NCBI GenBank assembly: GCA_946495675.1
Contig: CAMMDQ010000003.1
Location: 64,453 to 128,452, forward strand
Length of the DNA: 64,000 nt
Reading direction: 5' to 3'
From: an uncultured Bacillota bacterium
Lineage (GTDB): Bacteria; Bacillota; Clostridia; Christensenellales; UBA1242
Position numbers and translations under genes: made by a program. Shown here in pieces: positions 16,619-16,777 of this stretch; the stretch's first letter is position 1; the number at the start of each line of letters is the position of its first letter. Under the pieces are notes generated by a model. The model was not told the origin of the DNA. It was given only the letters and a program-made list of their open reading frames with translations, and did no database searches.

Positions 16619-16650
16619 AAAAAACAAAAATAGCAACCTTGACTGGTTGC
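16619..16650 (-). terminator. Attenuator terminator upstream of leuS
   Basis: GCAACC-AGTCAA-GGTTGC followed by TATTTTTGTTTTTT, directly before the leuS SD. Confidence 0.85.
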
Positions 16651-16704
16651 ACTTAAAAAAATTTTTTTTAGCACAACCAAAACTTGTGCCACTATTGTGG
16701 ACAC
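16644..16704 (-). promoter_or_regulatory. Mutually exclusive leader hairpins (A:B/C:D antitermination versus B:C/D:E termination)
   Basis: GTG-T-CCAC:GTGGCAC (16704-16686); GCACAA:TTGTGC (16689-16671); TGGTTGTGC:GTGCAACCA (16679-16644). Confidence 0.7.
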
Positions 16705-16708
16705 CAAA

Positions 16709-16741
16709 TCAAAGTAGTGCTAAAAGAATGTTTGTTTTCAT
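16709..16741 (-). CDS. Leucine leader peptide MKTNILLALL
   Basis: ATG AAA ACA AAC ATT CTT TTA GCA CTA CTT TGA upstream of the leuS attenuator; not in ORF track. Confidence 0.75.
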   Translation of the reverse strand: MKTNILLALL

Positions 16742-16747
16742 GCTTTG

Positions 16748-16777
16748 ATAATAGCATAATTGCCTTGCTTTTGTCAA
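16748..16777 (-). promoter_or_regulatory. Sigma-A promoter of the leuS leader
   Basis: TTGACA (16777-16772), 18-nt spacer, TATTAT (16753-16748); 6 nt before the leader-peptide ATG. Confidence 0.85.

What the first reader, a model, noticed from the sequence alone, without database searches (positions are those of the whole stretch)
16619..16777. Leaderless leucine leader-peptide attenuator controlling leuS
Seen on the minus strand: TTGACA-N18-TATTAT, 6 nt, then ATG AAA ACA AAC ATT CTT TTA GCA CTA CTT TGA (MKTNILLALL; 4 Leu codons among 5 consecutive codons). The predicted +1 is the A of the ATG and there is no good SD. Downstream are five segments. A:B is GTG(T)CCAC/GTGGCAC (16704-16686), B:C is GCACAA/TTGTGC (16689-16671), C:D is TGGTTGTGC/GTGCAACCA (9 bp incl. 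GU, extended by A8/T7) and D:E is GCAACC/GGTTGC plus a U tract. A ribosome at the stop codon would mask A, allowing B:C and then the D:E terminator. A ribosome stalled on Leu codons leaves A free, so A:B and C:D form and leuS is read through. Aminoacyl-tRNA synthetase genes in Firmicutes are commonly T-box controlled; I see no T-box here. Ribosome-mediated attenuation of leuS from a leaderless uORF is, as far as I know, not described in Firmicutes.
Basis: partly seen in the sequence, partly recalled or inferred. Interest (0 to 1): 0.92.

Follow-up and report, generated by a model that had tools for sequence, protein, structure and literature searches.

The report
Leaderless leucine-sensing switch before leuS
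In front of the gene that loads leucine onto its tRNA, this Clostridia bacterium and its relatives carry a tiny gene, starting at the very first base of the message, whose leucine codons probably let a stalled ribosome switch the big gene on when charged leucine-tRNA runs short; the same design precedes two other synthetase genes with histidine or glutamine codons instead.

Summary
TTGACA-N18-TATTAT-N6-ATG and the 10-codon MKTNILLALL* lie at 16777-16709 (minus), followed by segments A-E and leuS. The element is conserved in 11 species of the genus and 14 of a second genus: 33 of 35 leaders examined have a -10-like box exactly 6 nt before the ATG, the uORF keeps its frame, and Leu codons are kept through synonymous changes. 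Folding gives three states in most leaders: untranslated or ribosome-at-stop = terminator; ribosome stalled on Leu codons = antiterminator. Sibling leaders of the same architecture carry His codons before hisS and Gln codons before a MetRS-like paralog, strong evidence that the codons are the sensor. Leaderless genes are a real class in this genome (peak of -10 boxes at exactly 6 nt). Best explanation: ribosome-mediated transcription attenuation of leuS by a leaderless leader peptide. Novelty is limited: a leaderless Leu leader before leuS is already reported in Streptomyces lividans. I found none in Firmicutes, where a 2005 survey found no synthetase gene under classical attenuation. No experiment has been done.

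The parts
16748..16777 (-). sigma-70-type promoter TTGACA-N18-TATTAT (extended -10)
   Evidence: sequence; same promoter and -10-to-ATG spacing in all 11 leaders of the genus
16709..16741 (-). leaderless 10-codon leader-peptide ORF MKTNILLALL*, predicted +1 at A of ATG
   Evidence: -10-like box 6 nt before ATG in 33 of 35 leaders; Leu at codon 9 in 11/11 and codon 10 in 10/11 by different Leu codons
16717..16725 (-). segment 0 (UUUUAGCAC, inside the uORF), pairs with C 3' part
   Evidence: covariation by self-versus-swap test, p=0.0005 and 0.002 / 0.004 within genus
16697..16704 (-). segment A (GUGUCCAC)
   Evidence: pairs with B; A:B p=0.00005, within-genus 0.0011 with two genera
16684..16692 (-). 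segment B (GUGGCACAA), pairs with A or C
16666..16679 (-). segment C (UGGUUGUGC plus UAAAA), pairs with 0, B or D
16644..16652 (-). segment D (GUGCAACCA), pairs with C (antiterminator) or E (terminator)
   Evidence: C:D p=0.0115; D:E p=0.00005
16619..16638 (-). segment E (GGUUGC) and U-rich tract: 3' arm of the intrinsic terminator
   Evidence: terminator kept in the genus although E was rebuilt (GGTTGC, TGCTCG, GCGCT, TGTGCTGA) together with D
14199..16607 (-). leuS, leucyl-tRNA synthetase (802 aa), the controlled gene
   Evidence: TIGR00396 leuS_bact 983.5 bits, Pfam editing domain PF13603
16820..16855 (-). terminator-like hairpin (AAGGGC..GCCCTTTTTT) after the upstream collagen-like gene, isolating leuS as its own unit
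   Evidence: sequence reading

Best explanation
A ribosome-mediated transcription attenuator that couples leuS expression to charged tRNA-Leu. Transcription starts at the A of the uORF's ATG and a ribosome begins translation directly at the 5' end. (1) If Leu-tRNA is scarce, the ribosome stalls on the Leu codons (most likely codons 6-9; codon 9 is Leu in every species of the genus and usually the rare CUA). It masks uORF segment 0 but leaves A free, so A:B forms, C is left for D, and the C:D antiterminator lets RNA polymerase into leuS. (2) If Leu-tRNA is plentiful, the ribosome reaches the stop codon and covers A; B:C forms, D is free for E, and transcription stops. (3) If the uORF is not translated, or the ribosome has left, segment 0 pairs with C around the A:B hairpin and D:E again terminates, so the default is off. 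Shown computationally: conservation, frame, spacing, pairings, fold states. Inferred: leaderless initiation, stalling, termination efficiency, the leucine response.
For: Leader present in 11 species of the genus, one clade in the leuS tree, and in 14 species of a second genus. In G431 it sits before a non-orthologous leuS (54% identity to the window's), so it follows LeuRS function rather than the neighbourhood. uORF 33 nt in all 11 with no indels, while spacers just downstream vary; codon 9 is CTA/CTG/CTT/TTA and codon 10 CTT/CTA/TTA/TTG with one TTT. CTA is 4.8% of Leu codons in the genome. Covariation: D:E p=5e-5, 0:C p=5e-4, A:B p=5e-5, C:D p=0.0115 with two genera. RNA cut before D emerges: free RNA has C paired with the uORF, ribosome at stop has B:C at 0.78-1.00, stall at codon 7 or 9 mostly leaves A:B formed and C less engaged (11 leaders); the same trend in 35 leaders, with the change at the last sensor codons. 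Siblings of identical architecture: hisS with MKTLNILHHHK/MKKIFNLHHHA, MetRS-like gene with QQQ peptides in 10 species. Leaderless genes exist in this genome: 19 genes with the -10 box 6 nt before ATG, 0 at 5 nt, 4 at 7 nt.
Against: No transcript or translation data. At full equilibrium C:D beats D:E in G000 even with the ribosome at the stop, so the off state needs co-transcriptional trapping by B:C. In G060 equilibrium folding favours the terminator in all states. Leader G094 has only two Leu codons and G017 ends in Phe; G446 ends LLLTI. Terminator stems are short (about 6 bp in G000) with an interrupted U tract. The exact ribosome footprint is assumed (3' edge about 15 nt past the P-site). 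Permutation tests do not correct for phylogeny beyond genus.
Confidence: 0.85

Rival explanations
1. The conserved RNA is a switch controlled by something other than a ribosome (protein or ligand binding to the invariant B-C core), and the ORF is incidental.
For: B and C are nearly invariant in sequence; the infC leader of the same genome, an L20 leader (RF00558, E=4e-9), also has an ATG at the predicted TSS with a non-conserved frame, showing that a 5' ATG alone proves nothing.
Against: Here the frame and the Leu codons are conserved by synonymous change, and sibling leaders swap LALL for HHH or QQQ with the gene they precede. B and C are constrained by two or three partners each, which explains their invariance.
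Confidence: 0.07
2. The peptide LALL is a nascent-chain arrest peptide sensing something other than Leu-tRNA.
For: The peptide C-terminus is conserved.
Against: Synonymous variation concentrated in Leu codons, variation LALL/LALLL/LLALF/SALLLR, and replacement by HHH before hisS; a 10-aa peptide is very short for arrest in the exit tunnel (general knowledge).
Confidence: 0.03
3. It works as described but the mRNA is not truly leaderless: the TSS lies a few nt or further upstream.
For: Two of the 35 leaders read most simply as 7 or 8 nt between -10 and ATG (G438, G445); a sibling hisS leader in G560 has an SD (GGAGAAAAT ATG).
Against: 33 of 35 leaders have a -10-like box exactly 6 nt before ATG, mostly with no SD in front; genome-wide peak at 6 nt.
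Confidence: 0.1

Closest known systems
Leaderless LeuL2 leader peptide (MRAVRLLLSEPR) before leuS in Streptomyces lividans TK24 (PMC8079986); leuS attenuators predicted in Streptomyces (PMC1262725)
   Same: Leaderless, about 10-12 aa, run of Leu codons, hairpin and U stretch, same controlled gene.
   Different: Actinobacteria. Not compared by sequence here; no report found of the 0:C pairing or of sibling leaders with this architecture. Whether the two arose separately was not tested.
Leaderless polycysteine uORFs of mycobacteria (PMC4633059; Canestrari 2020, cited in PMC13236596 but itself not held)
   Same: Leaderless uORF with a codon run for the sensed amino acid.
   Different: Cysteine genes; described as translation attenuation in PMC13236596, not terminator/antiterminator control of a synthetase.
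E. coli leu/his/trp and pheST leader-peptide attenuators
   Same: Mutually exclusive hairpins selected by ribosome position; rare Leu codons as in leuL (general knowledge).
   Different: SD-led leader; here leaderless, and six segments with the sensor codons themselves pairing with C.
S. aureus ilv-leu Leu-rich attenuator peptide (PMC5794164)
   Same: Leu-dependent leader peptide attenuation in a Firmicute.
   Different: Controls biosynthesis, not a synthetase gene.
T-box riboswitch (RF00230)
   Same: The usual control of synthetase genes in Firmicutes, sensing tRNA charging.
   Different: No T-box at leuS here; T-boxes occur elsewhere in the same genome.

Membership tests
ribosome-mediated transcription attenuator (leader-peptide type) | short ORF with codons for the relevant amino acid, under selection as codons | tested here: met
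   synonymous Leu changes, frame kept, HHH/QQQ siblings
ribosome-mediated transcription attenuator (leader-peptide type) | mutually exclusive antiterminator and intrinsic terminator | tested here: met
   C:D versus D:E with covariation
ribosome-mediated transcription attenuator (leader-peptide type) | ribosome position decides which hairpin forms | tested here: inconclusive
   folding of masked RNAs agrees but equilibrium folding does not in all leaders; no experiment
ribosome-mediated transcription attenuator (leader-peptide type) | amino-acid-dependent readthrough | not testable with these tools
   needs reporter assays
leaderless uORF attenuator | TSS at the first base of the start codon | tested here: inconclusive
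   promoter spacing predicts it in 33 of 35 leaders; TSS not mapped
T-box | match to RF00230 upstream of the gene | tested here: not met
   no T-box in the window or in the 20 leuS loci scanned
Rfam leader-peptide families (Leu, Phe, His, Trp, Thr) | score above the curated cut-off | tested here: not met
   best leader-peptide match Phe_leader 17.8 bits, cut-off 55, E about 1

The most novel reading that the evidence does not exclude
A modular class of leaderless attenuators controls several synthetase genes in this Clostridia family. The sensor-codon segment is itself the anti-antiterminator and is echoed in D, so the sensed amino acid can change while the design stays. Its glutamine version would then reveal the unassigned substrate of a widespread MetRS-like paralog (present beside a more typical MetRS) as glutamine.
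Probability: 0.25. Interest if true: 0.85.

Novelty: new variant of a known kind. Interest (0 to 1): 0.62.

Why it matters
It puts classical leader-peptide attenuation of synthetase genes, so far reported from proteobacteria and actinobacteria, into Clostridia that also use T-boxes, and does so with leaderless translation as the entry point. The off state predicted for the untranslated RNA means the switch would report both initiation and elongation. Sibling leaders give a way to read the sensed amino acid of uncertain synthetase genes from the codon run.

Tried and rejected
Phage collection search: no match. Exact B-C motif over GTDB r220: 9 hits, all in contigs labelled uncultured Clostridia; where contig lengths could be compared they are the leuS leader contigs already found. 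Weak model hits in G528, G567, G513, G416, G115 and G000:C1:161298 are not leaders. The infC leaderless ATG looked similar but is an L20 leader with no conserved frame. Scans of G000 for other leaderless leaders found none with an amino-acid run matching the gene behind it. T-boxes that might reveal the MetRS-like enzyme's substrate: none found. Equilibrium folding of the full leader was a poor test, replaced by folding before D emerges.

Full report
WHAT IS THERE. Segments A to E follow and end in a U-rich tract directly before the Shine-Dalgarno of leuS, a bona fide bacterial leucyl-tRNA synthetase. The upstream collagen-like gene ends in its own terminator-like hairpin. No Rfam family fits; no T-box is present.

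CONSERVATION. A DNA search of the 112 genomes of the genus found the leader before leuS in G068, G017, G061, G070, G056, G062, G094, G089 and G060; G057 came from reading upstream of leuS. Aligned, all 11 have TTGACA, a -10 six bases before ATG, and a 33-nt ORF without indels, while the stop-to-A spacer, the A:B loop and the C-to-D loop vary in length. Codon 9 is Leu in 11 of 11 and codon 10 in 10 of 11, with different codons. A leuS tree puts the carriers in one clade (100/98) whose sister, G047, lacks the leader; more distant leuS genes in the genus show no such leader where read, and 20 scanned loci have no T-box there.

SECOND GENUS. A covariance model found leaders in a second genus of the family; with G457, found by scanning upstream of leuS, there are 14. 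Peptides are 9-12 aa, mostly ending LALLL. Segment A has changed together with B (GCCGA/UCGGC, GUGCC/GGCAC). G431 carries the leader before a leuS of another lineage. Other members of that genus lack it.

PAIRINGS. Self-versus-swapped duplex tests: D:E p=5e-5 and 0:C p=5e-4 in ten species; A:B p=5e-5 (0.0011 within genus), C:D 0.0115 (0.017) and 0:C 0.002 (0.004) in 21. These permutations keep genus but not finer phylogeny. B:C could not be tested by covariation because both sides are nearly invariant.

STATES. Folding RNA that ends before D: untranslated, C pairs with the uORF (0.49-0.99) around A:B; with the ribosome at the stop, B:C is 0.78-1.00; with codon 7 or 9 in the A site, A:B is usually formed and B:C low (exceptions G061 at codon 7 and G057 at codon 9, about 0.6; G094 0.43). 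The trend holds in 35 leaders, sharply in most leuS leaders of the genus and weakly in some second-genus and QQQ leaders. Dinucleotide shuffles reach the three-state pattern in 0.25-0.75% of cases. Equilibrium folding of the whole leader does not separate stall from stop in several species, G000 among them, so the model depends on co-transcriptional order.

SIBLINGS. Weak model hits led to leaders of the same architecture with other codon runs: MKTLNILHHHK (G425) and MKKIFNLHHHA (G508) before hisS, and an SD-led MKNYISNHHHSK before hisS in G560. Ten leaders with QQQ or QQQQ precede a MetRS-like gene; their Gln run always lies in frame although its distance from ATG varies. The QQQ-leader genomes that were checked also have a second, more typical MetRS, and the paralog scores far below MetRS cut-offs (226.9 against 587). 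In the siblings D echoes the sensor segment, for example ACATCACCA in hisS of G425. Codon runs matching the synthetase (Leu, His) argue strongly that codons are the sensor. For the Gln case the match is a prediction, since the enzyme's substrate is unknown.

LEADERLESS. In G000, 19 genes have a -10 exactly 6 nt before ATG against 0 at 5 and 4 at 7 nt, so leaderless mRNAs are probably ordinary here.

KNOWN WORK. Seliverstov et al. 2005 (PMC1262725) predicted leuS attenuators in Streptomyces and wrote that in Firmicutes no synthetase gene was under classical attenuation. The S. lividans TK24 re-annotation of 2021 (PMC8079986) reports a leaderless Leu leader before leuS, and leaderless leaders at trpS and thrS. 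S. aureus has a Leu-rich attenuator peptide for ilv-leu (PMC5794164). My searches found no Firmicutes synthetase case, in an open-licence library that lacks most subscription papers. Hence new variant of a known kind.

Noticed in passing
L213, L214, L215, L216, L217, L218, L226, L229, L234, L176 (genomes G466, G464, G460, G461, G463, G467, G462, G465, G469, G087): Leaderless uORFs with in-frame runs of 3-4 Gln codons before a MetRS-like class I synthetase paralog of unknown substrate; thousands of homologues exist, named 'class I tRNA ligase family protein' or methionine--tRNA ligase.
   Followed up: partly
L243, L244 (G425, G508) and L177 (G560): His-codon leader peptides (HHH) before hisS with the same A-E architecture; the G560 copy has a Shine-Dalgarno, the others look leaderless.
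   Followed up: partly
L107:5713-5766 (G000:C2:85713): ATG at the predicted TSS of the infC leader, conserved across the genus but with changing frame; the RNA is a sub-threshold L20 leader (RF00558) and infC appears to start with ATT.
   Followed up: yes
G000 whole genome: Clear leaderless class: 19 genes with a -10 box exactly 6 nt before ATG, among them genes that look like ruvC, rsmD, lgt and a UvrD-type helicase.
   Followed up: partly
L207 (G431): The leuS leader sits before a leuS of a different lineage (54% identity), suggesting replacement of the gene behind a retained leader.
   Followed up: no
window 16864-18384 (-): Collagen-like protein with long GPTGPTG/GATG repeats directly upstream of leuS.
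   Followed up: no
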